NCBI RefSeq assembly: GCF_008087625.1
Contig: NZ_CP042997.1
Span: 434,001-498,000 of the forward strand
Reading direction: 5' to 3'
From: Aquisphaera giovannonii
Lineage (GTDB): Bacteria; Planctomycetota; Planctomycetia; Isosphaerales; Isosphaeraceae
DNA length: 64,000 nt
Shown here in pieces: positions 1,141 to 51,853 of this stretch. The notes beneath the pieces are model-generated. The model was not told where the DNA came from. It saw only the letters and a list, made by a program, of their open reading frames with translations, and did no database searches. Every line of letters starts with the position of its first letter. Within the stretch, counting starts at the first letter, position 1. The translations under genes and the position numbers were made by a program.

Positions 1141-1220
1141 CCTCGTGGGAGCCGGCTCCGCCCGGCGACCGCGCCGGCCGAGGCTCACCCGGTCGCCGGG
1201 CGGAGCCGGCTCCCACGAGG
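1141..1220. repeat. REP-like palindrome, family R1 (GAGCCGGCTCCG)
   Basis: Two perfect 31-base inverted arms (1141-1171 and 1190-1220) flank an 18-base loop. The arm core is GTGGGAGCCGGCTCC followed by GCCCGGCGACCG. Related arms recur at 15594-15630 (one arm), 51695-51825 (three arms) and, degenerate, at 43163-43240, so this is a dispersed family and not only a local terminator. The hairpin lies between two genes on the minus strand and could still act as a terminator or processing site; no T-tract follows. Confidence 0.8.
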
Positions 1221-1257: not shown

Positions 1258-3246
1258 TCAGCGCCGGGTGTCGTCCTGCGCGGTGGCGTAGGCGTCGAGG
1301 ATGCCGGTGCGGCCGGGGTGGATGGCCTCGAGGTGGAGCTTGGACTTCACCGGGTAGGAGGGGCGCTCGCCGGCGCCGGTGAAGAGGATCAGGCGCCGGC
1401 CGTCGGGCTCGGCGAGGAGCTCGTCCACGGTCCTCAGGTCGTGCTGGGCCAGGTGCGGCAGCGCCGTGCGGAGGATGAACCGGAGCCAGCCGCCGGTGAA
1501 GGCCAGGTCCGCGGACCGGGCGGGGTCGGACGCGGCGGCGAGGTCGGAGCGGACGACGGAGAGGCTCTCGAACGGGTGCTCGCGGTTGCGCCTCAGGATC
1601 ATGGTCCGCAGCGCGAGCAGCTCGTGGGTCTCGCTGTGGCGGAAGACGACCTCCTGGACGCCCGTGCCGACGGTGATCGCCAGGACGGTGAGCAGGAAGC
1701 CGGCCAGCACGATGCGGCGGTGGACGTCCTTGCGGCGGGACCAGATCTCCAGCCGCCGGGTCAGGAGGATCGAGACGATCGCCAGGTCGAAGGCGAGGTG
1801 CACGCCCAGGGCGGTCGCCGCGCTGGCCCGGCCGTGGGCCAGGTCGCCCACGGCGCCGCGGAGGTCGGCGCTGGCCCACCACATCACGGAGAAGGCGGTG
1901 GCCGGCGCCAGGGCGATCAGCGCCCGGACCGGGATCCGCCGGTTGACCAGGTCCGCAACGGTCGAGGCGGCCAGCAGGTTCAGGGGCACGAGCAGGAGCA
2001 GGTCCATCGCCCCCCGCGGGCCGGCCGGCCAGAACGCCGGCAGCAGCGCGGCGACGCACAGCCAGAGGAGCCAGAAGGCGCCGCCGACGGTCTCCGGCGT
2101 GTTCTCGTCGTCCATCAGGCCCAGGCGGAAGGCCCGGGCGGCCCCGTACAGGCCCAGCGGCAGCGTCACCGGCGCCAGCTCGAAGAGGCGGGCCGGCAGC
2201 GACGAGGTCTCGCTCCAGGACGGGAACTCCAGCCCGGAGAGCATGTCCCAGCCGTGGGCCCGGAACATCGCGACCTGCCAGGGCACCGCGATCAGGGCCG
2301 CCAGCGCGACCACCAGCAGCGTGTCCACCCAGGCGGCGCCGAGGCGACGCGCCAGCCGTCGCGGCCAGGGCCATCGCCGGGACCGGGACGCGCCCCGGGC
2401 CCCCGGACGCGGCCGGAACGTCGGGTACAGCGACGGATCGGGGCCGATGTAGAGTCGATGCAGCGCGGCGATCGGCACCACGACCAGCCCGAAGCCGTCC
2501 AGGGTCAGCAGCGCGAGGCCCAGGCAGGCCCCCTCGGCGACCGCCCAGAACGCCGGGCGGGCCCAGGGGTCCGACCGGATGAGGTCCCTCGTCGCGCGCA
2601 GGTGCCGCCCGTAGCAGAGCAGCGCCGCGACCGTGGCGGCGACGGCCAGCGTGGTCGGCGTGGCCTCCTGCATCCGCAGGAGCAGGTTGGGGTTGAAGCC
2701 CACCAGCAGGGCCGCGGCGAACCCGACGCCCCCGCCCCGCCAGAGCCGGCCGTGGAGGTACGCGAGCATGACGATGAAGGTGCCGGCGATGTAGCTGGGG
2801 AGGACGCTGCCGATGGGGTCGTGGTCGGCGCTGAGCCCCATCCCGACGGCCGCCAGCCACGCATACAGCGGCGGTTGATAGGACACGGCGCGATACGCCA
2901 TGGCCTCGCCGGCCGGCCCGATCGCGTCGGCCGCGGGCACCTGGTCCACGAGCAGGCCGTCGTCCAGGACCGCGAGCGCCCGCAGGCCCCAGAGGGGCCC
3001 CGGCGGGGTCAGGTCCCACGAGTTCAGGGCCACCAGCCCCGGCAGGATCGCCACCAGGACGACCAGCGGGAAGAAGACCGCCGACCGCGGCGCGGGCCGG
3101 ATCAGCGGCCGGGCCGCCTCGGGCGGGCGCAAGCCCGGCGCGGGCACCGGCCCGGCCGCGGGCGGGACATCGGCCCGCATCTCCAGCCTCCGCATTCGCA
3201 CTCGTCGCGACAGACCTGCGTCCATGATCGACGCCGCTTCCGCCAT
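1258..3246 (-). CDS. Polytopic membrane protein, glycosyltransferase-39/ArnT-like (tentative)
   Basis: This 662-residue protein starts MAEAASIMDAGLSRR and has a long basic, Pro-rich N terminus. About ten hydrophobic helices follow, beginning with VFFPLVVLVAILPGLVAL near residue 60, and then a soluble C-terminal domain of roughly 150 residues. An acidic, aromatic loop follows helix 1 (DDGLLVDQVPAADAIG, then YRAVSYQPPLYAWLAAVGMG). This arrangement is typical of GT-C fold (family 39/ArnT-like) glycosyltransferases that use lipid-linked sugar donors outside the inner membrane. The assignment rests on topology and the loop, not on a decisive catalytic motif. Upstream of 3246 there is only a weak ribosome site (GTGAG), and Met8 is an alternative start. 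The neighbours do not form a recognisable glycan cluster. Confidence 0.6.
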   Translation of the reverse strand: MAEAASIMDAGLSRRVRMRRLEMRADVPPAAGPVPAPGLRPPEAARPLIRPAPRSAVFFPLVVLVAILPGLVALNSWDLTPPGPLWGLRALAVLDDGLLVDQVPAADAIGPAGEAMAYRAVSYQPPLYAWLAAVGMGLSADHDPIGSVLPSYIAGTFIVMLAYLHGRLWRGGGVGFAAALLVGFNPNLLLRMQEATPTTLAVAATVAALLCYGRHLRATRDLIRSDPWARPAFWAVAEGACLGLALLTLDGFGLVVVPIAALHRLYIGPDPSLYPTFRPRPGARGASRSRRWPWPRRLARRLGAAWVDTLLVVALAALIAVPWQVAMFRAHGWDMLSGLEFPSWSETSSLPARLFELAPVTLPLGLYGAARAFRLGLMDDENTPETVGGAFWLLWLCVAALLPAFWPAGPRGAMDLLLLVPLNLLAASTVADLVNRRIPVRALIALAPATAFSVMWWASADLRGAVGDLAHGRASAATALGVHLAFDLAIVSILLTRRLEIWSRRKDVHRRIVLAGFLLTVLAITVGTGVQEVVFRHSETHELLALRTMILRRNREHPFESLSVVRSDLAAASDPARSADLAFTGGWLRFILRTALPHLAQHDLRTVDELLAEPDGRRLILFTGAGERPSYPVKSKLHLEAIHPGRTGILDAYATAQDDTRR

Positions 3247-3495
3247 GTCTCACGCCGCCGGATCGATGCGACCCGGCCGGCCGACGCCCCCCCCGATTCG
3301 CCCCGCAGGCGGACCATAGCACAAGAGGCCCGATGGGGATAGCACGATCGCCCGGACGATCTCCCGGTCGATGGCCCCTCCCATGCGAGGAGCCATCGCC
3401 TCCCGGCGGCGGGGAACGTGGATTGGTTTCCCCGTCTTATCGGCAAGGCTCCCCGCCCGGCCGCAGGATTCCGGACCGTCGCCCCCCGGGCATGC

Positions 3496-5043
3496 TCAGG
3501 GCGTCACGGGCCTGCGATCTCCCGCTCCCTCCGGGGCGATGAGCTGATAGGTCACGAACGCGATCCGCTTCCCGTCCGGCGACCAGCAGGGGACATTGAT
3601 CGTCCCCTGGCCGCCGAAGAGCCGCGCCAGGACGTCCACACGCCGGGTGGCCAGGTCCATCCGTCGCAGGGCCACGTCCTGGTTCTCGGGGTGGCCCTCC
3701 ACACTCCTATCGTAGGTCAGGAACACCATGGTGCGGCCGTCCGGAGAGATGTGCGGGAACCAGTTGTTGAATTCATCATTCGTGACCGGCTGCTGATCGG
3801 AGCCGTCGGCGTTCATCCGCCAGATCTGCATCGAGCCGCCGCGCACGGAGTTGAAGTAGATGCGGCCGTCGGGGGCATACTCCGGCCCGTCGTCGAGCCC
3901 CGGGGCCGTGGTCAGGCGTGTCTCCGCGCCCCCCTCGGCCGGAATCGTGTAGATGTCGAACTCGCCGCCGCGGCTCCCGCAGAAGGCCAGCGTCCTGCCG
4001 TCGGGGGACCAGCCGTGCCAGTACGACGGCCCCTTCTCCGTGATCCGCCGCGGCGTCCCGCCCTCGATCGGCAGTGTGTAAATCAAGGAGTCGCGCCCCC
4101 GCGACTGGTCGCTGATGGCCAGCGTCTTGCCGTCGGGCGAGAGGCCGTGGTCGTTGTTGCAGCGCGTCGCGAACCCGGTGTCGATCGCCGCCGGCTGGCC
4201 GCCGCCCGCCGGGATCCGATAGATTCGCCCGCCGCTGTTGTAGATCAGGTTGTTCCCGTCCGCCAGCCAGTTGGGCGCCTCGATGCGCCCGGGCGTGACG
4301 TAAACGACGCTCCGGTCCGTGGACGACATCGTCATCGTCTCCAGCGTGCTGTGCAGCACCGGCTTGCCGGACGTCGAGGGCAGCGGAGACACCAGTTCCA
4401 CGTTCGAGAAGACGGCCCGCTCCACGACGTCCTTGTTGTGCGAGCAGACGGCGAGGCCCACGTAGAAGGGCTCCTCCAGGACGATCCGAGCCGCCGCGCC
4501 GGTGAAGCCGAGGGCCAGGGGGACGTCCCCGCCGGAGTCGAAGGAGAGGGTCACGTACTTGCCCCGCTTCTCGATCCGCAGCCGTCTCGGTGCCCGGGTC
4601 GAGGCCCGGACCTCCTGCGTCCGCTCGCCCTTCGCGGAGCGGAACTGGAGCGAGGTCAGGCCGTCGCCGTGCACCGCGACGTCCACGTACGCCGAGTCGG
4701 CGTCGAGGCCCTGGCGGATCATCAGGCAGGCCTTGCGGTGCGGGTCGGTCCCCTGCCCCGCGAAGGCGACGTCCGCGGCCAGCGACAGGTCGCCGGAGGC
4801 CCGCTTCCAGGCGAACTGGAAGGCATCGCGGGCGTTCCACATGTTCTCGCCGCTGCCGGCCAGCGTGTACGCATTCCGCCCCGGATCGAACGCGGCCTCC
4901 CCCGCGTGCAGGACCGCGCCGACGTCGCCGTGCCCCTCGAAGATCCCGACCGGGGCATCCGCGGCGGCCGCGGGTGCGGCCATCGGGGCACCCCCGGCAA
5001 AGGCGAGCAGAACAAGACGGATCCGCATCATCGACCGCAGCAT
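3496..5043 (-). CDS. Secreted TolB-like beta-propeller protein with N-terminal jelly-roll domain
   Basis: This 515-residue protein begins [18 protein letters not shown], a signal peptide ending near [10 protein letters not shown]. The start at 5043 has a GGGAGG ribosome site 7-8 bases upstream; the longer open frame back to 5223 is Arg/Pro-rich and not coding. Residues about 30-225 look like a concanavalin-like (DUF1349-type) domain with [16 protein letters not shown] and [15 protein letters not shown]. Residues about 245-510 hold PD40/TolB-type propeller blades: [53 protein letters not shown] and [13 protein letters not shown]. Such proteins are periplasmic or outer-membrane associated in planctomycetes, with unknown ligand. 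It is divergent from the ECF sigma gene across 185 bp. Confidence 0.8.
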
Positions 5044-5228
5044 GCCCGATCCTCCCGGCTGGCCTGGACGTTCCCGAAGGGGCGAACCCTCGCCAGGATA
5101 CCGCCGCCGCGCCGGCCCTGCCCGGAAAATCGCCGCCCGGGTTCGTCCAACCGCCCGCCCCGCGCGTCCTGTATGGTGAGGATCGCGGACGCGACCCGAG
5201 GATTCCCCCCGGCCCGGACACATGGCCG

Positions 5229-15580: not shown

Positions 15581-15593
15581 CATGCGGCCTCCC

Positions 15594-15630
15594 CGTGGGA
15601 GCCGGCTCCGTCCGGCGACCGGGTGAGCCT
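15594..15630 (+). repeat. Single arm of repeat family R1
   Basis: One arm of the family (GTGGGAGCCGGCTCC, then GTCCGGCGACCGGGTGAGCC) is present without its inverted partner. It sits between R4 copies A and B. Confidence 0.65.
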
Positions 15631-15748
15631 CGACCCCCCGCCGGGTCGGAGAGCTGTCGCTGCGGCGCCGGGCTAAGCGCAACCGTCCCGCACGGATCCG
15701 GCCAGCTCGGTTCTCGCAGGCATTCGGGGGCGTTGCCGTCCGTCCCGG

Positions 15749-19043: not shown

Positions 19044-19110
19044 CTCGATGTCGGCCCGAGCACCGACCTCCGAATTGCCAAACCGGGCCCGAGCGACCCG
19101 CCCGCCTGGG

Positions 19111-19711
19111 AAAGCCGTCGGTGTCAGGAAAGCCGTCGGAAAGCCGTCGGTGTCGGAAAGCCGTCGGTGTCAGAAAGCCGTCGGTGTCAGAAAGCCGTCG
19201 GTGTCAAGAAAGCCGTCGGTGTCAAGAAAGCCGTCGGTGTCAGATCTATTTCCCCCACCACTGAGAAAGCCGTCGGTGTCAGATCTATTTCCCCCACCAC
19301 TGGAGAAAGCCGTCGGTGTCAGATCTATTTCCCCCACCACTGAGAAAGCCGTCGGTGTCAAAAGCCGTCGGCAAAAGCCGTCGGTGTCAGATCTATTTCC
19401 CCCACCACTGCAGAAAGCCGTCGGTGTCAGATCTATTTCCCCCACCACTGAAAGCCGTCGGTGTCAGATCTATTTCCCCCACCACTGAGAAAGCCGTCGG
19501 GAAAGCCGTCGGTGTCAAAGCCGTCGGTGTCAGATCTATTTCCCCCACCACTGAAAGCCGTCGGCAAAGCCGTCGGTGTCAGATCTATTTCCCCCACCAC
19601 TGAAAGCCGTCGGTGTCAGCCGTCGGTGTCAGATCTATTTCCCCCACCACTGGAAAGCCGTCGGTGTCAGATCGAAAGCCGTCGGTGTCAGATCTATTTC
19701 CCCCACCACTG
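19111..19711. repeat. Two-module tandem repeat array
   Basis: Module A is AAAGCCGTCGGTGTCA (16 bases) and module B is GATCTATTTCCCCCACCACT plus G (21 bases). I count 20 full A modules, four A modules truncated after GTCGG, ten full B modules and one B stub (GATC). B never occurs without A before it, whereas the first six A modules have no B. Junctions vary (CAGG, CAAG, CTGAG, CTGGAG, CTGCAG). The array ends in the palindrome CCACCACTGTGGTGG. All reading frames stay largely open simply because neither module contains frequent stops; there is no ribosome site or start. Confidence 0.9.
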
Positions 19712-26335: not shown

Positions 26336-29300
26336 ATGTGGAAGATCCGGACGTTCGTCGGCGAATGGCTGCTGCCCGGACGAGAGGCGCGGAGCGGCTC
26401 GACGCGGAGGCCGTCGCGGCGAGCCTCGGTCGGCAAGCGGCCCGAGCTCGAGCCGGTCGAGGCGCGAATCCTCCTCAGCACGGCCGAGGTCGCGACGATC
26501 CGGGCCACGCCGCTCCTGGTCGATTCGCAGGCGAAGGCCTCGGTGGAGGTCAGCGAGGTCGGCGGCATCGCGCTGAGGAACAGGCGGGGGGACCTCACGG
26601 CCTCGCTGACTTCGAACGGCCGGCCGGTCGAGGGGCTGGCGGTGATCTTCCGGATCGGCAATCGCGTCGTCGGCACGGCGAGGACCGACGCCGACGGCGT
26701 GGCGACGCTGAGTAACGTCAGGGTGGGCAGGCTGAAGGTCAGGAACTATGCCGCCAGGACGGTCGTCGTCTTCAAGGGTAACTCGCAGCTGATGCCGGTC
26801 GTCCGGCGCGGGCCGCTGACGGTCAGCCGGACGGCCTCCGCGCTGTCCGGCGTGACGGCCACCGGCGTCTACGGCGGCGCGGCGACGTTGTCGGCCGTGC
26901 TCGGCTCGAAGCGGGGCGAGGCGGCCGGCAAGCCGGTCCTCTTCGCGCTGGATGGCAGGGCCGTCGGCGTCGCCACGACGGACGCCCAGGGCGTGGCCAC
27001 GCTCCCCGGCGTCAGCCTCGCCGGCCTGAACGCCGGTGCCCACGGCGTCACGGCCAGGTTCGCCGGCGATATCGACTACTACAAGGCGACCGCCACCGGC
27101 ACGCTGACGATCGCCAGGGCCACGACCTCGATCACCCTCGGCAACCTGTCGCAGACGTACGGTGCCACGACGCAGCCCACGGCCACGACCGGGCAGCCCG
27201 GCCTGCCGGTCGAACTCTCCTACACCGACGCCAGCGGCCATGCGGCTGCCCAGCCGTTCAGGGCGGGCACCTACACCGTCACGGCGAGGATCGCCGACCC
27301 GAATTACATCGGCAGCGCCGTCGGGACGCTGGTCGTGGCGCCGGCGGCGGTGGGCATCTCCCGCATCGACGCCATGAGCAAGGCCTATGACGGGACGACC
27401 GCCGCGACGGTCGACTCCGGCAGCGTCGTCCTGACCGGCGTGGTCGCCGGAGACTCGGTGTCGATCGACGCCTCGCACGCGACCGCGAGCTTCGCCAGCG
27501 ACCACGTCGGCGCGGATCAGGCCGTCACGATCGCCGGCCTGGCGCTGACCGGCCCCGACGCGAGCAATTACGTCCTCTCCCAGTCCTCGGCGACCGCCAC
27601 CGCGTCGATCACGCCCAGGGCTCTGACCGTCGCCGGCATCGCCGCGGACGACAAGGTCTACGACGGGACGACCGCCGCCACGTTCTCGCTCTCGCCCGGC
27701 GCGGGGCTGGACGGCGTGGTCGGCGCCGACGACGTCTCGCTCGTGAGCGGCCTCGTCACGGCGTCGTTCGACTCGAAGTCGGCCGGCCAGGGCAAGGCCG
27801 TGACGTTCGACGGCTTCTCCCTGTCGGGCGGCGACTCGGGCAACTACGTCCTCTCGCCGGTGACGGCCGCCGCCGACATCACCAGGGCCACCTTGACCGT
27901 CGCCGGCATCGCCGCGGCCGACAAGGTCTACGACGGCACGGCCGCGGCCACGCTCGACGCGAGCGGCGCCTCGCTCGGCGGCGTCATCGGCGCCGACGAC
28001 GTGTCGCTGGACGCCTCGGCGGCCACCGGTTCCTTCGACACGAAGGACGCCGACAACTCGTCCAAGGCCGTGACGATCTCCGGCCTCGCCCTCGCCGGCG
28101 CCGACGCGGGCAACTATCAACTGGCTGGCGCGTCGGCGTTCGCGTACATCTCGCCCAAGGTCCTGGCCGTCACGGGGGTCACGGCGGGCAGCAGGGTGTA
28201 CGACGCCACGACGGCCGCCTCGCTGGACGCCTCGGCCGCCTCGCTGGTCGGCGTGGTCCCGGGCGACGACGTGGCGCTCAATACCGCGGGCGTCTCCGGC
28301 TCGTTCGTCGACAGGAACGTCGGCACGGCCAAGGCGGTCATCGTCTCCGGCCTGGCCCTCGCGGGCCCCGGCGCGGGCAACTACATCATCGCGGCCCCGG
28401 GCGTCACCGCCGACGTCACGCCCCTGACGCTGACCATGTCGCCGACGAGCACGGCGACCAAGACCTACGACGGCACCACGTCGGCCCCGCCCCCGATCGC
28501 TCCGTCGCTCGCGGGCGTCATCGGCGGCGACAGCGTGGCGCTGGACGCCTCCGGGGCGACGGGGGCCACGCTCGCCGACAAGAACGTCGGGACGAACAAG
28601 GTCGCGACCGAGCACGGCCTGGCGCTCTCGGGCGTCGACGCCGGCAACTACCTCCTGGACCCGACGTACCTCGTCAACGTCACCCCCGCTTCGGTCTCCG
28701 TCACGGGGATCACGGCGCCAGGCAAGGTGTACGACGGCACGACGGCCGCCACGCTGGACACGAGCGGCGTCTCGTTCGCCGGCGTCGTCATCGGCGACGA
28801 CGTGACGTTCGACGCCTCCTCGGCCGTCGGCAGCTTCGCCGACAGGGACGCCGGGACGGGCAAGACGGTGACGGTCACCGGCCTGACCAAGTCCGGCGCC
28901 GACGCCGGGAATTACGCCTTCGCCTTCCCCACGCCGGTCACGGCCACCATCACGCCCAAGGCCCTGACCGTGACGGGCATGCAGGTCGACGGCAAGGTGT
29001 ACGACGGCACGACGGCCGCCACGATCGCCGCGCTCCCCGGCGGCGTGATCTCCGGGCTGGTCAACGGGGACGACGTCTCGATCGACCAGGCCGCGACCTC
29101 GGCCGGCGCCACCGCCGCGTTCGCCGACAAGGACGCCGGCACCGGCAAGACCGTGACGGTCACCGGCGTGCAGTTGACCGGCGCCGACGCCGGCAATTAC
29201 ACGGTCTCCTCGGCGACCGGCTCGGCCGACATCAGCAAGGCGACGATCACGCTCTCGGGCGTCGCGGCGAGCAAGACCTACGACGGCACGACCGACGTCA

Positions 29301-30055
29301 GCTTCAACCTGGGCGGCGCCTCGCTCGGCGGCGTGATCGGTGCCGACGACGTGTCGCTGGACGCCTCGGCGGCGACCGGCTCGTACGCCGACAAGGACGT
29401 CGGCACGGGCAAGGCGATCACGGCCAACGGCTTCGCCCTGGCCGGCGCCGACGCCGGCAACTACACGCTCGCCGTCGATCCGATCACCGGCGACATCGCC
29501 TCGAAGATCCTGTCCATCGAGGGCTTCACCGCGACGGATCGGACCTACGACGGCACGACGGGCGTCACCGTCGGCGCCGCGGGGGTCAACTTCCACGCGG
29601 GCGATCTCGTCGCCGGCGAAGACGTCGCCTTCGATTATTCGTCGCTCGCCGCCGCCGCCGGCAGCATGGCGGACAAGAACGCGGGCGTCGGCAAGGCGGT
29701 GACGATCACCGGCCTGAGCGTCACCGGCGCGGACGCCGGCAACTACAAGGTCGTGGCGTCCACCACGGTCAACATCGCGAAGGCGACCCTCACCGTCACG
29801 GGGATCCCGAACCTCACCAAGAGTTACGACGAAAACCAGTACTTCGTCTCGATCAACACCTCCGGTGCGGCGCTCAGCGGGATCATCGGCGCCGACACGG
29901 TCACTCTCAATACGTCCGGGATTTTCGGCGTGTCCACCTCGGCGAACGTCGGCACGTGGAACGTCTACATCAACGGCCTGGCGCTCGGCGGGACGGACGC
30001 CGGGAATTACAACCTCGGCACCGTCATCGTGAGCGGCACGATCCAGGGCCCCTGA
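26336..30055 (+). CDS. Giant surface protein with Ig-like and ten YDG repeats
   Basis: This 1239-residue protein starts MWKIRTFVGEWLLPGREARS after AAGGGG. It carries the planctomycete N-terminal motif LEPVEARILLS near residue 43, thought to mark export of large surface proteins. Two bacterial Ig-like domains (about 60-265) contain YGGAATLSAVLGSKRGEAAG and TTDAQGVATLPG. An MBG-type segment follows (about 265-345). Ten YDG repeats of about 90 residues then run to the end; starts read AYDGTTAAT, VYDGTTAATF, VYDGTAAATL, VYDATTAAS, TYDGTTSAP, VYDGTTAATL, VYDGTTAATI, TYDGTTDVS, TYDGTTGVT and SYDENQYF. YDG/MBG repeats occur in filamentous adhesins. The role is probably cell-surface adhesion or matrix; no enzymatic domain is present. 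Confidence 0.85.
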   Translation: MWKIRTFVGEWLLPGREARSGSTRRPSRRASVGKRPELEPVEARILLSTAEVATIRATPLLVDSQAKASVEVSEVGGIALRNRRGDLTASLTSNGRPVEGLAVIFRIGNRVVGTARTDADGVATLSNVRVGRLKVRNYAARTVVVFKGNSQLMPVVRRGPLTVSRTASALSGVTATGVYGGAATLSAVLGSKRGEAAGKPVLFALDGRAVGVATTDAQGVATLPGVSLAGLNAGAHGVTARFAGDIDYYKATATGTLTIARATTSITLGNLSQTYGATTQPTATTGQPGLPVELSYTDASGHAAAQPFRAGTYTVTARIADPNYIGSAVGTLVVAPAAVGISRIDAMSKAYDGTTAATVDSGSVVLTGVVAGDSVSIDASHATASFASDHVGADQAVTIAGLALTGPDASNYVLSQSSATATASITPRALTVAGIAADDKVYDGTTAATFSLSPGAGLDGVVGADDVSLVSGLVTASFDSKSAGQGKAVTFDGFSLSGGDSGNYVLSPVTAAADITRATLTVAGIAAADKVYDGTAAATLDASGASLGGVIGADDVSLDASAATGSFDTKDADNSSKAVTISGLALAGADAGNYQLAGASAFAYISPKVLAVTGVTAGSRVYDATTAASLDASAASLVGVVPGDDVALNTAGVSGSFVDRNVGTAKAVIVSGLALAGPGAGNYIIAAPGVTADVTPLTLTMSPTSTATKTYDGTTSAPPPIAPSLAGVIGGDSVALDASGATGATLADKNVGTNKVATEHGLALSGVDAGNYLLDPTYLVNVTPASVSVTGITAPGKVYDGTTAATLDTSGVSFAGVVIGDDVTFDASSAVGSFADRDAGTGKTVTVTGLTKSGADAGNYAFAFPTPVTATITPKALTVTGMQVDGKVYDGTTAATIAALPGGVISGLVNGDDVSIDQAATSAGATAAFADKDAGTGKTVTVTGVQLTGADAGNYTVSSATGSADISKATITLSGVAASKTYDGTTDVSFNLGGASLGGVIGADDVSLDASAATGSYADKDVGTGKAITANGFALAGADAGNYTLAVDPITGDIASKILSIEGFTATDRTYDGTTGVTVGAAGVNFHAGDLVAGEDVAFDYSSLAAAAGSMADKNAGVGKAVTITGLSVTGADAGNYKVVASTTVNIAKATLTVTGIPNLTKSYDENQYFVSINTSGAALSGIIGADTVTLNTSGIFGVSTSANVGTWNVYINGLALGGTDAGNYNLGTVIVSGTIQGP

Positions 30056-41883: not shown

Positions 41884-42408
41884 GTGGCGAAGGGCGTCGA
41901 GGCCAAGAAGCGGGAGGCTGCCGCGAAGCTGGTGGCGCTGGAGAAGGCGCACTGGCGGACGCCGGATCGGTTCGAAGGGCTGGCGAGGCGCGCCTCGCAG
42001 TTCGCGAGCAGCCCGTGGGGCACCCACGTGGCGTTCGGCCTGCTGGCCTTCTGGCTGGGGGCGAGCGTCGTGGTGGGCTGGAGGAACGCATACGACATGG
42101 TGGAGGAGGTCGCGACGATGTCGTCGTTCCTGCTCCTCTTCCTCCTCCAGCGCGCCCAGGCCAAGGACACGCTGGCCATGCAGGCGAAGCTGAACGAGCT
42201 GCTCGCCGCGGTGAACAAGGCGAGCCCGCAGCTCATCAATCTGGAGGACCGCAGCGAGGAGGAGGTCCGCGAGGTCCACGACCTCTACCAGGAGCTCCGC
42301 ACGGCCAGGTCCGAGTCCCACTCGATCGAGGAGGTCCGCGAGCAGGTGCTGGAAGACCTCGCCGAGGAGGGGGTCGCGTCGGCGGAGGCGGCCAACGGGA
42401 AGAGTTGA
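41884..42408 (+). CDS. Low-affinity iron permease-family small membrane protein
   Basis: This 174-residue protein starts at a GTG with GGAGG seven bases upstream. Two membrane helices are present (WGTHVAFGLLAFWLGASVVV and VATMSSFLLLFLLQRAQAKD). The stretch LLFLLQRAQAKDTLAMQAKL, followed by NELLAAVNKAS, matches the PF04120 family signature (usual FLIQNTQNRDTxAxQxKLDEL). The acidic C-terminal helix is EEEVREVHDLYQELRTARSE. Despite the family name, transport activity is unproven and the protein is small. It may instead be a membrane accessory protein. Confidence 0.75.
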   Translation: MAKGVEAKKREAAAKLVALEKAHWRTPDRFEGLARRASQFASSPWGTHVAFGLLAFWLGASVVVGWRNAYDMVEEVATMSSFLLLFLLQRAQAKDTLAMQAKLNELLAAVNKASPQLINLEDRSEEEVREVHDLYQELRTARSESHSIEEVREQVLEDLAEEGVASAEAANGKS

Positions 42409-42440
42409 GCCCCGCCCGGCCCGGCTCGCCCGAATCCGGG

Positions 42441-43070
42441 TCAGCGGGCGCCTCGCAGACGCTCCTCCATAATCCGGGCGACGGCCCGAGAATCCTCGTC
42501 CGCCTGCACGGCGAGGGCCAGGGCAGCCTTCCTCCGCCGCCCTTCCGGGTGGTTCTGGCCGAGCTTCCACTTGCCCTCGAGCCGGGTGATGGCGATCCGG
42601 AACCCGACGATCGCCCGGAGCATGTTCTCGACATGCGGGGCCGACTCGTCGAACCGCCAGGGCTCGGGCCGCGGACCCTCGTAGGCGGCGACCGATCGGC
42701 GGAGGATGTCGAGCAGGCCGTCGCGGTCCTCCACGAGCTCGAGCGTCCCGTACGCGTGCACCGCCGCGTAGTTCCAGGTGGGGACGGTCCCCTCCTCCTC
42801 GTACCACGACGGCGAGACGTACGCGTGCGGCCCGGAGAAGATCGCCAACACCTCGCCCTCGACCCCCTTCCACTGCGTATTGGCCCGGGCCATGTGGCCG
42901 AGGAGCCGCCCGTTCGGCCCGGCGTCGGGGCCGTCCTCGAGGACCAGCGGCAGGTGGCTTGCGACCAGCCCGGCCGGGCCCCGCGAGGCCAGCACGGCGA
43001 AGCTGTGCCGCCGCATGAAATCGTGGAGCGTGGGCAGGTCGGCCTCGGCGAAGGCGCTGGGGACGTACAT
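42441..43070 (-). CDS. FMN-binding PaiB-like protein
   Basis: This 209-residue protein starts MYVPSAFAEADLPTLHDFMR. It shows the PaiB family pattern of a split-barrel flavin-binding fold: MRRHSFAVLASRGPAGLVAS, HMARANTQWKGVEGEVLAIF, SGPHAYVSPSWYEEEGTVPT and WNYAAVHAYGTLELV. The end KWKLGQNHPEGRRRKAALAL is also typical. In Bacillus, PaiB is described as a negative regulator of sporulation and protease genes; many homologues are probably flavin enzymes. Met at 43070 is used because the longer frame upstream has no family similarity. Confidence 0.85.
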   Translation of the reverse strand: MYVPSAFAEADLPTLHDFMRRHSFAVLASRGPAGLVASHLPLVLEDGPDAGPNGRLLGHMARANTQWKGVEGEVLAIFSGPHAYVSPSWYEEEGTVPTWNYAAVHAYGTLELVEDRDGLLDILRRSVAAYEGPRPEPWRFDESAPHVENMLRAIVGFRIAITRLEGKWKLGQNHPEGRRRKAALALAVQADEDSRAVARIMEERLRGAR

Positions 43071-43162
43071 GGCTGGGCGAGCTCCTCCTCGACGGTGGCC
43101 GCGAATCCGATGCGCCTGGATTCTACATCGCATCCCGGTTCCATGGCTTCGGGGACTGCCCT

Positions 43163-43240
43163 CCGCGGGAGCCGGTCCCGTCCAGCGACGGGGTGAACCG
43201 GGCTCGGCATGTTCGCCGGGCGGGGCCAGCGGTCCCGCGG
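43163..43240. repeat. Degenerate R1 repeat
   Basis: CGCGGGAGCCGGTCCCGTCC, AGCGACGGGGTGAACC and, inverted, GCCGGGCGGGGCCAGCGG with TCCCGCGG resemble the R1 pair with many substitutions. The surrounding 300-base interval (43071-43370) has no gene. Confidence 0.4.
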
Positions 43241-43370
43241 TTTCCCACTCTCGGACGCCATGCATCCGTCATGCGGTATCGCTTCGTCGATCACGGGCGT
43301 CAGCTTGGCGAAAGCCCTCCGGCCCGCTAACCTGGACTGATCAGGAACGTGCCTACCCGGAGATGTTGCC

Positions 43371-43790
43371 ATGACGCTCTCGGAAGTCGTCGGAGAGATC
43401 ATCCGGCTTGGTGACGCGAGCCGGGCTTACTGGGATAGGGAGTTGCCCAAGGACCATCCCCACTACCCGCTGATCCTCGACGGAGAGAAGCAAACACCCC
43501 CGCCGCCTGAGGACGCTCAGATCCTCTCAATCCTGGAAAGCCTGCCCGAAGCGCAGATCTACGCCGTGGCTCTGCTCATGTACCTGGGCCGCGGCGACTT
43601 CGCGGCCGACCGAATCCCTTCGGCGATCCCCAGGGTCAAGAAGATGCTCCCGACGAAGGACCTCGCGATCGACCAGATCATGTCACAGACTGCGCTCGCC
43701 GAATATCTCGCGGACGCGGTTGCGGAGGCCCGGCGACGCCGCATCGATCTGGACGACCTCGCTTCCTGCGACGCCGTGGCGGTGAATTGA
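43371..43790 (+). CDS. DUF3775-like protein, partner of the HEPN gene
   Basis: This 139-residue protein starts MTLSEVVGEIIRLGDASRAY with GGAGAT upstream. The central part (AQIYAVALLMYLGRGDFAAD) resembles the DUF3775 pattern (a MWLGRGD-like motif), and the C terminus reads MSQTALAEYLADAVAEARRR. It is predicted all-helical, soluble and acidic. The downstream HEPN-domain gene begins 12 bp after the stop, so the two are probably one transcript. Its function is unknown; an antidote or partner role for the HEPN protein is a hypothesis. Confidence 0.7.
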   Translation: MTLSEVVGEIIRLGDASRAYWDRELPKDHPHYPLILDGEKQTPPPPEDAQILSILESLPEAQIYAVALLMYLGRGDFAADRIPSAIPRVKKMLPTKDLAIDQIMSQTALAEYLADAVAEARRRRIDLDDLASCDAVAVN

Positions 43791-43802
43791 AGGAGCGTCT
43801 CC

Positions 43803-44375
43803 TTGCCCTCGAACGCGCTCTCGGTTCACCTGGATCAGCTCCTGGGAGATGCCGGCGAACTGGACACGATCCATTACCAATTGAGGACGGGACTGCCCGG
43901 TAGGCAGTACGGGCTCGCGTCCTTGAATCGAGCCGCGGTCGTGATCAGCGTCTCGGCGTGGGAGTCGTATATCGAGGAGCTCATGCGCGAGTCGTTGCAG
44001 GCCCTCCGCCCTGCGGTTCCGCCCCTCGGCAATTGGCCCGCGTTGAGCGCGTTCATCCGCGGAGAAGTCGGAAGATTCAACACGCCCAACGCCCAGAACG
44101 TCGCGAATCTGATGAACCGGTGCCTGGGTCTTCCCGATGTGCGGGCCTCATGGGGATGGCGAAACTGCACCTCGACGCAGGCGGCAGATCTTCTCAACCG
44201 TGCCTTGGACCTGCGTCATCAGATCGCTCACGGCGTGAACCCGCGTCCTGTCATCCACAATCATTATTCAAACTGGCTTCCGGGCTTCATTCGGCGTTTG
44301 GCCCGATGCACCGACGACGCCGTTCGTAACCACCTCGTTGCGACTCACGCGGTCTCAAGCCCATGGCCGGCATGA
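43803..44375 (+). CDS. RiboL-PSP-HEPN-type HEPN domain protein
   Basis: This 190-residue protein starts at TTG with AAGGAGC six bases upstream. Visible features are AAVVISVSAWESYIEELMRE, TPNAQNVANLMNRCLGLPDV, GWRNCTSTQAADLLNRALDL and RHQIAHGVNPRPVIHNHYSN. RHQIAH is the R-x4-H motif that forms the RNase site in many HEPN proteins, and the overall pattern fits the RiboL-PSP-HEPN family. HEPN nucleases act in toxin-antitoxin, abortive infection and RNA processing systems. The product is likely cytoplasmic. Base composition is lower in GC than the flanks. Confidence 0.75.
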   Translation: MPSNALSVHLDQLLGDAGELDTIHYQLRTGLPGRQYGLASLNRAAVVISVSAWESYIEELMRESLQALRPAVPPLGNWPALSAFIRGEVGRFNTPNAQNVANLMNRCLGLPDVRASWGWRNCTSTQAADLLNRALDLRHQIAHGVNPRPVIHNHYSNWLPGFIRRLARCTDDAVRNHLVATHAVSSPWPA

Positions 44376-44447
44376 TGGTCGGGCATCTCCTCCGGGAATC
44401 ACCGCACCGAGAGGCTCGCCGGCGCATGTGAAAACACCGAGTTCACC

Positions 44448-45233
44448 ATGCCCATCAGCGTCCGGCAGAAGCGCAAGGCCTTCGCGAAGCTCCACGAGGA
44501 GGGCTGCTTCGTGCTGCCCAATCCCTGGGACCTCGGCAGCCTGCGGCGGCTCGAGAGGTTGGGATTCCCGGCGGTCGCGACGACGAGCGCCGGGCTCGCG
44601 TGGTCGCGGGGCAAGGAGGACTACGGGATCACGCGGGACGAGGCGATGGAGCAACTGCATACGATCTGCCCCGCGACGGACCTGCCCGTGAACGCCGACT
44701 TCGAGAACGGGTTCGCCGACGAGCCCGAGGCGGTCGCGCGGAACGTCCAGTACGCCGCGATCGAGGGGGTCGCCGGCCTGTCGATCGAGGACTGGGGGCC
44801 GGCCGGCCTCTACGAGAAGCCGCTCGCGGCGGAACGCATCCGCGCGGCCCGCGAGGCGCTCGACGAGGACGAGGACGACCGGCATGTCCTCCTCGTCGGC
44901 CGGTGCGAGGCCATGCTGCACGGCGAGGCTCGCATCGGGCCGGTGATCGAGCGCCTGACGGCCTACGCGGAGGCCGGCGCGGACTGCCTGTACGCGCCGG
45001 GCGTGCGGCAGCCGGACCACATCCGGGCCATCGTCCGGGCCGTGGCGCCGAAGCCGGTCAACGTGCTGCTGATGGGGCCCGAGATGAAGGTGGCCGACCT
45101 CGCCGCGCTCGGCGTGCGGCGGGTCAGCGTCGGCGGCCGGCTGGCGGCCGCGGCCTGGAAGGCGTTCGACGACGCGGCCCGGCACCTCGCCGAGCTCGGA
45201 TGCCTGCCCGCGTCGATCTACGGCCGAGGCTGA
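44448..45233 (+). CDS. Isocitrate lyase/PEP mutase family enzyme (short form)
   Basis: This 261-residue TIM-barrel protein includes FVLPNPWDLGSLRRLERLGF, FPAVATTSAGLAWSRGKEDY, DLPVNADFENGFADEPEAVA and VAGLSIEDWGPAGLYEKPLA, the usual substrate and Mg2+ elements of the PEP mutase-like subgroup. The loop that carries KxCGH in isocitrate lyases is absent; the short DWGPAGLYEK form replaces it. Substrate unknown, possibly an oxaloacetate or phosphonate derivative. It is a distant paralogue of the enzyme at 40138-41028. The ribosome site is weak. Confidence 0.85.
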   Translation: MPISVRQKRKAFAKLHEEGCFVLPNPWDLGSLRRLERLGFPAVATTSAGLAWSRGKEDYGITRDEAMEQLHTICPATDLPVNADFENGFADEPEAVARNVQYAAIEGVAGLSIEDWGPAGLYEKPLAAERIRAAREALDEDEDDRHVLLVGRCEAMLHGEARIGPVIERLTAYAEAGADCLYAPGVRQPDHIRAIVRAVAPKPVNVLLMGPEMKVADLAALGVRRVSVGGRLAAAAWKAFDDAARHLAELGCLPASIYGRG

Positions 45234-45270
45234 ACCGGCGGGCGGCGTGCCCCGCGATCCGGAGGGTGCG

Positions 45271-45546
45271 ATGTCGAAGCTCCCGTTCATCCTCGGCCCG
45301 CTACTGATCCTGGCCGGGGGCTGGATGATCCTGCTGTTCGTGGGCTTCTCGACGATGGTCGAACCCGACCTCGAGGGCTGGGCCCGGTGGCGCAAGATCC
45401 TGACGCAGGCGTCCGCGGTCGATCTCTCGTGGCTGGCCGTCGGCGTCGTCCTGGTCGCGGCCGGATTCCGCGTCGCCGCATCCGGCGGGCGGGGGCGGGA
45501 GACGCCGCATGCCGTCAACGACGGGGCGGGTCGGGATGGATTTTGA
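45271..45546 (+). CDS. Small membrane protein with two helices
   Basis: This 91-residue protein starts MSKLPFILGPLLILAGGWMI with GGAGGG upstream, so it is preferred over the GTG at 45247. It has two hydrophobic helices (ILGPLLILAGGWMILLFVGF and LSWLAVGVVLVAAGFRVAAS) and a short loop (VEPDLEGWARWRKILTQASA). It lies 37 bp after the PEP mutase-like gene on the same strand. No function is recognised. Confidence 0.6.
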   Translation: MSKLPFILGPLLILAGGWMILLFVGFSTMVEPDLEGWARWRKILTQASAVDLSWLAVGVVLVAAGFRVAASGGRGRETPHAVNDGAGRDGF

Positions 45547-50218: not shown

Positions 50219-51853
50219 TCAGCGGCCGGCGGCCGCCGGGGTATCTGCCCTCGCTGGGGGGCCGGGAGGCAGCACCCGGCGGAGGGCGTCCAGGGTCTCC
50301 GGGGAGGGCTTGAAGTTGCCCGGGCGGTGGCCCTCGGCGATGGACAGCGGCGTCCAGTCGTGGGCGTCGGGACGGTTCCAGATCTCGGGCTTCGCGCCGT
50401 GGGCGGCCAGGAAGGAGACGACGCGCGGGAAGTTCTTGTAGGCCGCGCCGTGCATGGCGGTCTCGCCGTCGAGATCGACGGCGTTGACGTCGTTGCCGAG
50501 GGAGAGGAGGAGCTCGACGGCCTCCAACGCCTCGTCCTCGGTGCCGGCCTCCTCGTCGGGGGCCAGGCAGCCGAGGCCGGCGGCGGCCATGAGCGGGGTG
50601 CTGCCCCGGGCGTTGGGCATCCGCGGATCCGCGCCCAGGCGGAGCAGCTCCTTCATGTAGGGGACGTCGGCCGTCATGCAGGCGAGCAGGAACGGCGTGG
50701 CCCCGGCGCGGCCGAGGACGCCCTTGCCGGAGGCGCCCCGCTTCAGCCGAGCGTTGACGTCGGCGCCGTGCCTCGCGAGCACCTCGACGAGCTGGAGGCT
50801 CGTCAGCTTGCCGGAGCCGATCGGCGGCGGGTCGCCGGCCGCGTCGTCGCCCCGGGGGGGCTTGCGGACCCAGGTGAGCATGTGCAAGGGCGTGAATCCG
50901 GACCGCTGGTCGTTCGGGTCGGCGCCGGCGTCCAGGAGCATGGCGGCCAGCTCGAAGTGGCCGTTCTCGACGGCCAGGATCAGGGGCGTCGTGCCCTTCG
51001 CCGGGGACCGCTCCCCGCCCTTCTCGCGGGGCTGCATGGGCTCGTTGACGTCGGCCCCGGCCTTGATGAGGGCGAGGGCGGCGCCGATGCGGCCCTCGCG
51101 GGCGGCGAAGGCCAGCGGCGTGAAGCCGGAGGCGAGCGGCGTCCGGAAGTCGGCCTTCGCGGCCAGCAGGATCTGGACGACCTCCTCGTGCCCCTCCGCG
51201 GCCGCCCACATCAGGGCCGTCTGCCCGCGACGCTCCTTCGCGTCCACGCCCGCCCCGCGGGCGAGCAGCGCCTTGACGGGCCCCGGCCGGCCGGCGCGGG
51301 CGGCGGTCATCAGCGGCGTCTCGCCGCCGCGGAGTGGGGCGTTGGGATCGGCCCCGGCGTCGAGGAGGAGGGCGACGATCGCCTCGTCGCCGTTCTCGCA
51401 GGCCAGGGACAGCGGCGTGACGCCGTAGCGGTTGGCGGCCTTCGCGTCCGCCCCGGCGAGCACCAGCAGACGGGCCATCTCCGGGTCGTCGCGACGGGCG
51501 GCCCAGTGGAGGGCCGTCATGCCGTCCGCCTGCGATCGGTCCGGGTCCTCGCGGCGATCGAGCAGGGCGCGGACGGCCGCGCGGTCGCCCCGCTCGGCGG
51601 CGTCGGCCAAAGGGGCGTCGGCGGCGAGCGCCCCGGGCGCGAGCAGCAGTACGAGGATCGCCAGCCCGAAAACGCCAGGGGGGCGCACCTCTCTCGTGGG
51701 AGCCGGCTCCGTCCGGCGACCGCGCGGGCCTCGGCTCACCCGGTCGCCGGACGGAGCCGGCTCCCACGGGAAGACCTCCGCTCGGCGAAGGCTCACCCGG
51801 TCGCCGGGCGGAGCCGGCTCCCACGGGGCTCGCTCCACTCCATTCGGGGGCAT
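50219..51853 (-). CDS. Ankyrin-repeat protein with repeat-derived N-terminal extension
   Basis: This 544-residue frame contains about nine ankyrin repeats, for example MTALHWAARRDDPEMARLLV, GVTPLSLACENGDEAIVALL, QTALMWAAAEGHEEVVQILL, TTPLILAVENGHFELAAMLL and GSTPLMAAAGLGCL. A signal sequence (VRPPGVFGLAILVLLLAPGA) precedes LADAAERGDRAAV. The ATG at 51853 has GGAGG eight bases upstream, but its first 50 or so codons are three R1 repeat arms (peptide WEPAPPGDRVS repeated). An internal GTG just before VRPPGV would give a normal exported protein but lacks a well-spaced ribosome site. It is probably a periplasmic protein-interaction scaffold. It follows the DUF1552 gene by 32 bp. Confidence 0.8.
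   Translation of the reverse strand: MPPNGVERAPWEPAPPGDRVSLRRAEVFPWEPAPSGDRVSRGPRGRRTEPAPTREVRPPGVFGLAILVLLLAPGALAADAPLADAAERGDRAAVRALLDRREDPDRSQADGMTALHWAARRDDPEMARLLVLAGADAKAANRYGVTPLSLACENGDEAIVALLLDAGADPNAPLRGGETPLMTAARAGRPGPVKALLARGAGVDAKERRGQTALMWAAAEGHEEVVQILLAAKADFRTPLASGFTPLAFAAREGRIGAALALIKAGADVNEPMQPREKGGERSPAKGTTPLILAVENGHFELAAMLLDAGADPNDQRSGFTPLHMLTWVRKPPRGDDAAGDPPPIGSGKLTSLQLVEVLARHGADVNARLKRGASGKGVLGRAGATPFLLACMTADVPYMKELLRLGADPRMPNARGSTPLMAAAGLGCLAPDEEAGTEDEALEAVELLLSLGNDVNAVDLDGETAMHGAAYKNFPRVVSFLAAHGAKPEIWNRPDAHDWTPLSIAEGHRPGNFKPSPETLDALRRVLPPGPPARADTPAAAGR
51695..51825. repeat. R1 repeat cluster, three arms
   Basis: Arms lie at 51695-51722 (one orientation) and at 51741-51768 and about 51792-51825 (the other). 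The first two pair perfectly over 28 bases. They share GGAGCCGGCTCC and CCGGCGACCG with 1141-1220. The cluster sits between the ribosome site and the signal-sequence codons of the ankyrin gene. Confidence 0.75.

What the first reader, a model, noticed from the sequence alone, without database searches (positions are those of the whole stretch)
43371..44375. DUF3775-HEPN gene pair as a candidate defence or toxin-antitoxin module
A small helical protein and a HEPN protein with RHQIAH (R-x4-H RNase motif) are 12 bp apart, in a pocket with different base composition from the flanks and with a degenerate R1 repeat upstream. HEPN RNases commonly need an adjacent neutraliser.
Basis: inference. Interest (0 to 1): 0.5.

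Follow-up and report, generated by a model that had tools for sequence, protein, structure and literature searches.

The report
Mobile HEPN–DUF3775 candidate toxin–antitoxin pair
A planctomycete chromosome carries a compact two-gene cassette, a probable RNA-cutting HEPN protein preceded by a small helical partner of unknown function, that recurs as a pair in different genome neighbourhoods of related bacteria and looks like a toxin–antitoxin (or phage-defence) module with an undescribed type of partner.

Summary
A DUF3775 protein (139 aa, ATG, 43371-43790) and a RiboL-PSP-type HEPN protein (190 aa, TTG, 43803-44375) lie 12 bp apart in a lower-GC pocket, with a degenerate dispersed repeat upstream. 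The pair is a conserved cassette: of 8 intact close HEPN loci (window included), 7 have DUF3775 directly upstream, with different adjacent genes in each. A same-genus genome has the flanking genes without the pair. Distances of the two proteins correlate, and DUF3775 is the more diverged in 21 of 21 comparisons. The R-x4-H motif is kept, and the modelled fold aligns best to solved HEPN proteins. The partner is predicted as a helical domain without a significant Foldseek match. Against an obligate pair: one intact close relative is solo, 17 more distant HEPN loci lack DUF3775, and DUF3775 also occurs without this HEPN. Distant relatives include one beside a DRT4/6-like defence reverse transcriptase and others in viral and plasmid records. 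Best reading: a HEPN RNase toxin or abortive-infection effector held by a co-inherited DUF3775 neutraliser. Toxicity, RNase activity and binding are untested.

The parts
43164..43239 (.).
   Evidence: Repeat family D7; local alignment score 78, 0 of 500 shuffles and 0 of 412 other segments as high
43358..43362 (+). Shine-Dalgarno-like CGGAG ahead of the DUF3775 ATG
   Evidence: Direct reading
43371..43790 (+). DUF3775 protein, 139 aa, ATG start; candidate neutraliser (antitoxin) or regulator
   Evidence: Pfam PF12616 E 1e-5, 7 of 7 aligned members match; model pLDDT 86.8, pTM 0.80, all-helical
43790..43795 (+). Shine-Dalgarno-like AAGGAG ahead of the HEPN start, its first base being the last of the DUF3775 stop codon
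   Evidence: Direct reading
43803..44375 (+). RiboL-PSP-type HEPN protein, 190 aa, TTG start; candidate RNase toxin/effector, motif R138-H-Q-I-A-H143
   Evidence: Pfam PF18735 E 4.9e-11; R138, H139, H143 invariant in 9 aligned sequences; HEPN fold in the model

Best explanation
This is a small, mobile two-gene toxin–antitoxin-like module. The second gene encodes a HEPN endoribonuclease (R-x4-H active site) that would cut cellular or phage RNA and stop growth. The first gene encodes a helical DUF3775 protein, made first and from a stronger start codon, which holds the HEPN protein inactive, most likely by direct binding, since I know of no enzymatic motif in it. Loss or displacement of DUF3775, for example in infection or stress, would free the HEPN RNase. 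Shown here: the genes, the motif and modelled fold of HEPN, the conserved order and linkage, the variable location of the cassette, and correlated divergence. Inferred: RNase activity, toxicity, neutralisation by binding, and the trigger.
For: DUF3775 lies directly upstream of HEPN in 6 of 8 relatives found by searching with HEPN alone, 7 of 9 with the window; the two exceptions are solo L013 and a 5'-truncated, frameshifted HEPN remnant, L015. Gaps between the two genes are 1-42 nt. Taking the homologous starts, DUF begins with ATG in 7 of 7 pairs and HEPN with TTG or GTG in 5 of 7, with the putative antitoxin first, as PMC3710099 describes for several type II systems (passages). The adjacent genes differ from genome to genome, and the same-genus G294 keeps the flanking genes without the pair (no HEPN or DUF3775 match in G294). 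The DUF-paired HEPNs plus L013 form a clade with 100/99 support. DUF is more diverged in 21 of 21 comparisons and the distance matrices correlate (r 0.88; 12 of 5040 permutations as high). NG86 dN is below dS in 7 of 8 comparisons; the eighth gave no dS. R138 and H143 are invariant in 9 of 9 aligned sequences. The HEPN part of the model aligns best to HEPN structures, including the HepT toxin (7bxo Z 9.1).
Against: L013 is an intact close relative without DUF3775, so this HEPN can exist without it. None of 17 distant RiboL-PSP-HEPN loci has DUF3775. DUF3775 matches occur in G405 (two copies, one over the curated cut-off) and G424 (partial, below it) without an inclusion-level HEPN match nearby. 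The relatives were found by a HEPN search, so the pairing is not an unbiased count for DUF3775. The read-through model gave no coordinates or PAE, so no interface was tested. Toxicity and RNase activity were not measured.
Confidence: 0.58

Rival explanations
1. Abortive-infection pair rather than addiction module: HEPN is an effector that is quiet by itself, and DUF3775 is a sensor or activator that switches it on when a phage component appears.
For: Distant HEPN relatives occur in 4 viral contigs, on 7 plasmid records, and 11 nt behind a reverse transcriptase scoring E 1e-143 to PADLOC Drt6 and 1.6e-132 to Drt4 (L036); solo L013 is intact. PMC3710099 links the family distantly to AbiF and AbiD (passages). 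The faster divergence of DUF3775 also fits a sensor.
Against: In the window the neighbours are metabolic genes, not recognised defence genes. The partner-first order with weak HEPN start codons is more typical of toxin–antitoxin pairs.
Confidence: 0.27
2. The two genes are co-transcribed but functionally independent, or the HEPN is a non-toxic RNA-processing or RNA-binding protein.
For: Both components are found apart (L013; G405; 17 distant loci).
Against: The same order and adjacency persist down to 22% DUF identity between pairs, beside different genes, with correlated divergence; the catalytic motif is invariant in 9 aligned sequences.
Confidence: 0.13
3. DUF3775 is the toxin and HEPN the antitoxin, or HEPN is a substrate-binding partner, as was first proposed for HEPN–MNT (PMC3710099, passages).
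For: Function of DUF3775 is unknown; the only paper found holding the name is an insect study (listing).
Against: The R-x4-H motif is kept in the 9 aligned copies and present in 16 of 16 distant loci inspected for it, as expected of an active RNase; the degraded locus L015 lacks DUF3775.
Confidence: 0.02

Closest known systems
RiboL-PSP-HEPN family (Pfam PF18735; Anantharaman et al. 2013, PMC3710099)
   Same: Profile match above the curated cut-off, R-x4-H motif, HEPN-like modelled fold
   Different: The paper lists fusion to endoRNase L-PSP and operons with ParB (passages); 'DUF3775' does not occur in its main text. This clade is paired with DUF3775.
HEPN–MNT (HepT–MntA) toxin–antitoxin system (PMC7641770, start of abstract in listing)
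   Same: Two-gene operon with the partner gene 5' of HEPN (PMC3710099, passages); modelled HEPN aligns to HepT at Z 9.1
   Different: The partner is DUF3775, not a nucleotidyltransferase; neutralisation by adenylylation is therefore not expected
DRT4/DRT6-type defence reverse transcriptase with a downstream HEPN (L036, G191)
   Same: A HEPN 37-38% identical to the window's (33% by tblastn), also ending in PWPA, begins 11 nt after the RT gene
   Different: The partner is a reverse transcriptase. A 2026 article describes DRT6 as single-gene (PMC13213688, passages). The only other such RT found in 392 genomes has no HEPN or DUF3775 profile match in the 3.5 kb held.
AbiF/AbiD abortive-infection HEPN proteins
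   Same: Said in PMC3710099 to be distantly related to this HEPN family (passages)
   Different: Not compared by sequence here; no Abi family was returned by Pfam for the window protein

Membership tests
HEPN superfamily, RiboL-PSP-HEPN family | Profile match above curated cut-off | tested here: met
   PF18735 43.3 bits against 28.4
HEPN superfamily, RiboL-PSP-HEPN family | R-x4-6-H motif conserved | tested here: met
   R138 and H143 invariant in 9 of 9 aligned sequences; an R-x4-H string also in 16 of 16 distant loci inspected
HEPN superfamily, RiboL-PSP-HEPN family | HEPN helical fold | tested here: met
   Top five VIA-align rows all HEPN proteins, Z 8.3-9.2; Foldseek itself had no hit at E <= 0.001
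HEPN superfamily, RiboL-PSP-HEPN family | Metal-independent endoribonuclease activity | not testable with these tools
   Needs biochemistry
DUF3775 (PF12616) | Profile match | tested here: met
   Window 25.8 bits, just under 27; 27.1 in the genome search; 7 of 7 alignment members match at E <= 0.1, best 1.1e-9
Type II toxin–antitoxin module | Two adjacent co-directional genes conserved as a pair | tested here: met
   7 of 8 intact close loci, window included
Type II toxin–antitoxin module | Occurrence in different genomic contexts / mobility | tested here: met
   Different adjacent genes; absent between the same flanking genes in G294
Type II toxin–antitoxin module | Toxin inhibits growth, antitoxin relieves it by binding | not testable with these tools
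   Experiment required; the model gave no interface data
Type II toxin–antitoxin module | Autoregulation by a DNA-binding antitoxin | not tested
   Only a sigma-70-type promoter and terminator scan was run (none found)
HEPN–MNT (type VII) module | Partner is a minimal nucleotidyltransferase | tested here: not met
   Partner matches DUF3775 and no nucleotidyltransferase family in Pfam
Known anti-phage system in PADLOC 2.0.0 | Protein matches a PADLOC model | tested here: not met
   0 families for either window protein at E <= 1

The most novel reading that the evidence does not exclude
DUF3775 is a new family of protein neutraliser (or phage-responsive regulator) for HEPN RNases, and one HEPN lineage acts as a portable effector whose controller is exchanged between systems: DUF3775 in planctomycete cassettes, a DRT4/6-like reverse transcriptase in another, none recognised in phage-borne copies.
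Probability: 0.35. Interest if true: 0.62.

Novelty: new variant of a known kind. Interest (0 to 1): 0.45.

Why it matters
If true, a domain of unknown function gets a first testable role, and the set of partners that can restrain a HEPN RNase grows beyond nucleotidyltransferases. The pair is compact, with a defined active site and natural solo and degraded relatives for comparison, so the test is simple: a co-expression assay with R138/H143 mutants. It also flags one HEPN/DRT reverse-transcriptase operon.

Tried and rejected
Fold of DUF3775: Foldseek against PDB (63 matches at E <= 10, none at E <= 0.001), VIA-align second look (best Z 4.1; a di-AMPylated HEPN toxin chain at Z 3.3 among unrelated rows) and BFVD (none at E <= 0.001) gave nothing usable; this shows neither a new fold nor a lack of relatives. 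Sequence search of solved structures gave only BICD coiled coils (E 0.016-0.043) for DUF3775 and one ribosomal protein at E 0.86 for HEPN. Weak Pfam rows taken as chance: STAS_2 (E 0.1) for DUF3775 and PhdYeFM_antitox (E 0.089) for HEPN.

DUF3775 elsewhere: no match with the window protein in plasmids or with the L014 protein in plasmids and phages; in viral contigs 23 stretches matched a pattern and none was a relative. HEPN in annotated phages: none. The pair's DNA in plasmids: none. NCBIfam, PADLOC and PHROGs: nothing for the window proteins. Rfam: nothing in 42400-45300. Sigma-70-type promoter and terminator scan: none, weak evidence in a planctomycete.

RT–HEPN as a general pairing: 2 of 392 phylum genomes have the RT at E <= 1e-40, with at most 3 candidates scored per genome. 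L045 (G214) shows no HEPN match, but only about 450 bp downstream of its RT are held.

Literature: 'DUF3775' gave one irrelevant paper (listing); 'RiboL-PSP' none (the paper prints it 'Ribo L-PSP'); 'DRT6' with 'HEPN' none. PMC8934634 was seen in passages, without this pairing in them. Other HEPN/TA searches were seen as listings.

Rows dropped: L006 was left out of the distant HEPN count (E 0.15); L007 and L040 are the same places as L004 and L029; L020/L034 is the same contig as L008. L038 is a near-copy of L018, and L023 has a stop inside its match; both are counted.

DUF3775 itself was sought only in planctomycete genomes, 14 control genomes (0 hits), plasmids, phages and viral contigs, so other phyla, where I recall it being common, were not examined.

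Full report
What is there. On the + strand of the window, a 139-aa ATG-started ORF (43371-43790) and a 190-aa TTG-started ORF (43803-44375) are separated by 12 bp. The first matches Pfam DUF3775 (E 1e-5, 25.8 bits, cut-off 27), the second HEPN_RiboL-PSP (E 4.9e-11, 43.3 bits, cut-off 28.4). The DUF3775 match is marginal for the window protein alone but holds for 7 of 7 homologues, best 1.1e-9. PADLOC and NCBIfam have no model for either. Each is single-copy in the 10.5-Mb genome. Direct reading shows a Shine-Dalgarno-like AAGGAG before the TTG start; the six paired relatives use GTG or ATG at the homologous place.

Composition and repeat. DUF has GC3 0.81 and HEPN 0.74, against a mean of 0.89 (sd 0.09) for 43 mechanically chosen window ORFs and 0.93-0.97 for the two flanking genes. 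HEPN is the fourth lowest, so the pocket is real but not unique. A degenerate copy of a dispersed palindromic repeat lies at 43164-43239; its score is reached by 0 of 500 shuffles and 0 of 412 other segments. Nothing ties the repeat to the function of the pair.

Conservation of the pair. A scan of genome contigs with HEPN alone gave 8 related loci, all in assemblies labelled as Planctomycetota or groups within it. Six have DUF3775 directly upstream, same strand (L008, L009, L010, L011, L012, L014), with 1-42 nt between the genes. L013 has an intact, AT-rich HEPN (GC3 0.46) without DUF3775; a gene that looks by eye like a serine recombinase and a DUF2924 gene lie nearby. L015 is a remnant lacking the HEPN 5' part, with a frameshift and no DUF3775. 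L020/L034 from G319 is the same contig as L008 by length and protein sequence and is not counted again. With the window this makes 7 of 8 intact and 7 of 9 in all. Taking homologous starts, all 7 DUF genes begin with ATG; HEPN starts are TTG 1, GTG 4, ATG 2.

Different neighbourhoods. Eight adjacent or near proteins of L008-L011 and five more of L010-L012 and L014 are planctomycete cytochrome/PSD proteins, kinases, a peptidase, an ABC-type ATPase, Omp85, a cupin protein and unknowns. No gene recurs in the same place and orientation, but common planctomycete families do recur (DUF7133/cytochrome c in L008 and L012, protein kinases in L008 and L011). In the window the neighbours are an FMN-binding protein and a PEP-mutase-like protein. 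In the same-genus genome G294, the iron-permease and PEP-mutase genes are collinear (75% and 79% identity) with about 0.5 kb between the matches instead of about 2.1 kb; the FMN-binding, DUF and HEPN genes had no match in the 18 kb fetched, and G294 has no HEPN or DUF3775 match at all. So the site is variable; gain in the window or loss in G294 was not resolved.

Rarity. With the HEPN profile, 4 of 45 order genomes match at E <= 0.001, two of them (G000, G319) with the close pair. In 392 phylum genomes HEPN matches at E <= 1e-20 in 2 (G000, G191) and the DUF alignment at E <= 0.001 in 1 (G000); only the best 8 and 10 candidates per genome were scored. With Pfam DUF3775, 4 of 136 class genomes match: G000 and G319 (paired), G405 (two copies, one over the cut-off) and G424 (partial, under it). 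The stretches around the last two hold no inclusion-level HEPN match. The G405 proteins score only E 0.03-0.05 with the pair's own DUF profile, so they are distant. DUF3775 is therefore not exclusive to this HEPN.

Evolution. A tree of 20 HEPN proteins puts the 7 paired ones and L013 together with 100/99 support; the pairing label needs 2 changes, against a shuffled mean of 6, so one gain and one loss (L013) is a simple account. In 21 of 21 pairwise comparisons DUF3775 is more diverged (mean identity 0.36 against 0.61), and the distances correlate (r 0.88; 12 of 5040 permutations as high). That is expected of a co-inherited pair with a fast-evolving partner, as an antitoxin or a sensor would be. 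NG86 dN is below dS in the 7 of 8 comparisons that gave a dS value, several near saturation, so both are genes under constraint.

Wider HEPN family. Seventeen more distant HEPN loci (L003/L036, L004, L005, L016, L017, L018, L021, L022, L023, L029, L030, L031, L032, L038, L041, L042, L043) have no inclusion-level DUF3775 match; several are held with only 1.5 kb of flank. An R-x4-H string is present in 16 of 16 inspected for it. Four are in viral contigs and seven on plasmid records. In G191 the HEPN (37-38% identical to the window's) begins 11 nt after a reverse transcriptase that scores E 1e-143 to PADLOC Drt6 and 1.6e-132 to Drt4. A second such RT, in G214, has no HEPN match in the 3.5 kb held. 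A 2026 article calls DRT4 and DRT6 single-gene systems (PMC13213688, passages).

Structure. DUF3775 alone is predicted with pLDDT 86.8 and pTM 0.80 as a bundle of six main helices, with no usable match in PDB or BFVD. A read-through chain of both proteins has pLDDT 81.2 and pTM 0.73. Its HEPN part aligns best to HEPN proteins: 2hsb Z 9.2, HepT 7bxo Z 9.1, 4nqf Z 8.3. Foldseek alone had no match at E <= 0.001, and the tool warns that Z under about 13 for helical bundles can be a common arrangement; but the top five rows are all HEPN and agree with the sequence match. Neither coordinates nor PAE were available, and the short artificial linker could bias docking, so I draw no conclusion on the interface.

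Mechanism. The best-supported account is a HEPN RNase restrained by DUF3775. Shown: HEPN family, motif and modelled fold; an ordered, relocating, co-diverging pair. Inferred: RNase activity (from the family, PMC3710099), toxicity, and neutralisation by binding. The main rival is an abortive-infection pair with DUF3775 as sensor or activator, favoured by the intact solo relative and by the phage, plasmid and DRT contexts of distant relatives. The two differ on whether HEPN alone is toxic.

Known or new. HEPN toxins with a 5' partner are known (HEPN–MNT, passages), and RiboL-PSP-HEPN is a known family. The word DUF3775 occurs in one paper of the library, an unrelated one; the library holds open-licence PMC papers only. 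I rate the pair a new variant of a known kind.

Noticed in passing
L036 (G191:C353) 2919-5092, minus strand: A DRT4/DRT6-like reverse transcriptase gene is followed after 11 nt by a RiboL-PSP-HEPN gene 37-38% identical to the window's; a possible RT–HEPN defence operon.
   Followed up: partly
L013 4416-5567: Intact AT-rich solo HEPN with no + strand ORF of 60 aa or more in the 585 bp upstream; a natural test of what the HEPN does without DUF3775.
   Followed up: partly
L051 (G405:C1 4115500-4122500) and L052 (G405:C1 885500-892500): Two similar stand-alone DUF3775 proteins of about 141 aa in one genome, with no HEPN match nearby.
   Followed up: partly
window 1142-1217, 15592-15667, 43164-43239, 51693-51825: Dispersed palindromic repeat with core GTGGGAGCCGGCTCC, several copies in the window, in part as inverted pairs.
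   Followed up: partly
window 19110-19711: Dense irregular array of a roughly 40-nt unit containing AAAGCCGTCGGTGTCAGATCTATTTCCCCCACCACTG.
   Followed up: no
window 27331-30017: About ten degenerate repeats of roughly 270 nt inside what looks like a long repetitive protein gene.
   Followed up: no
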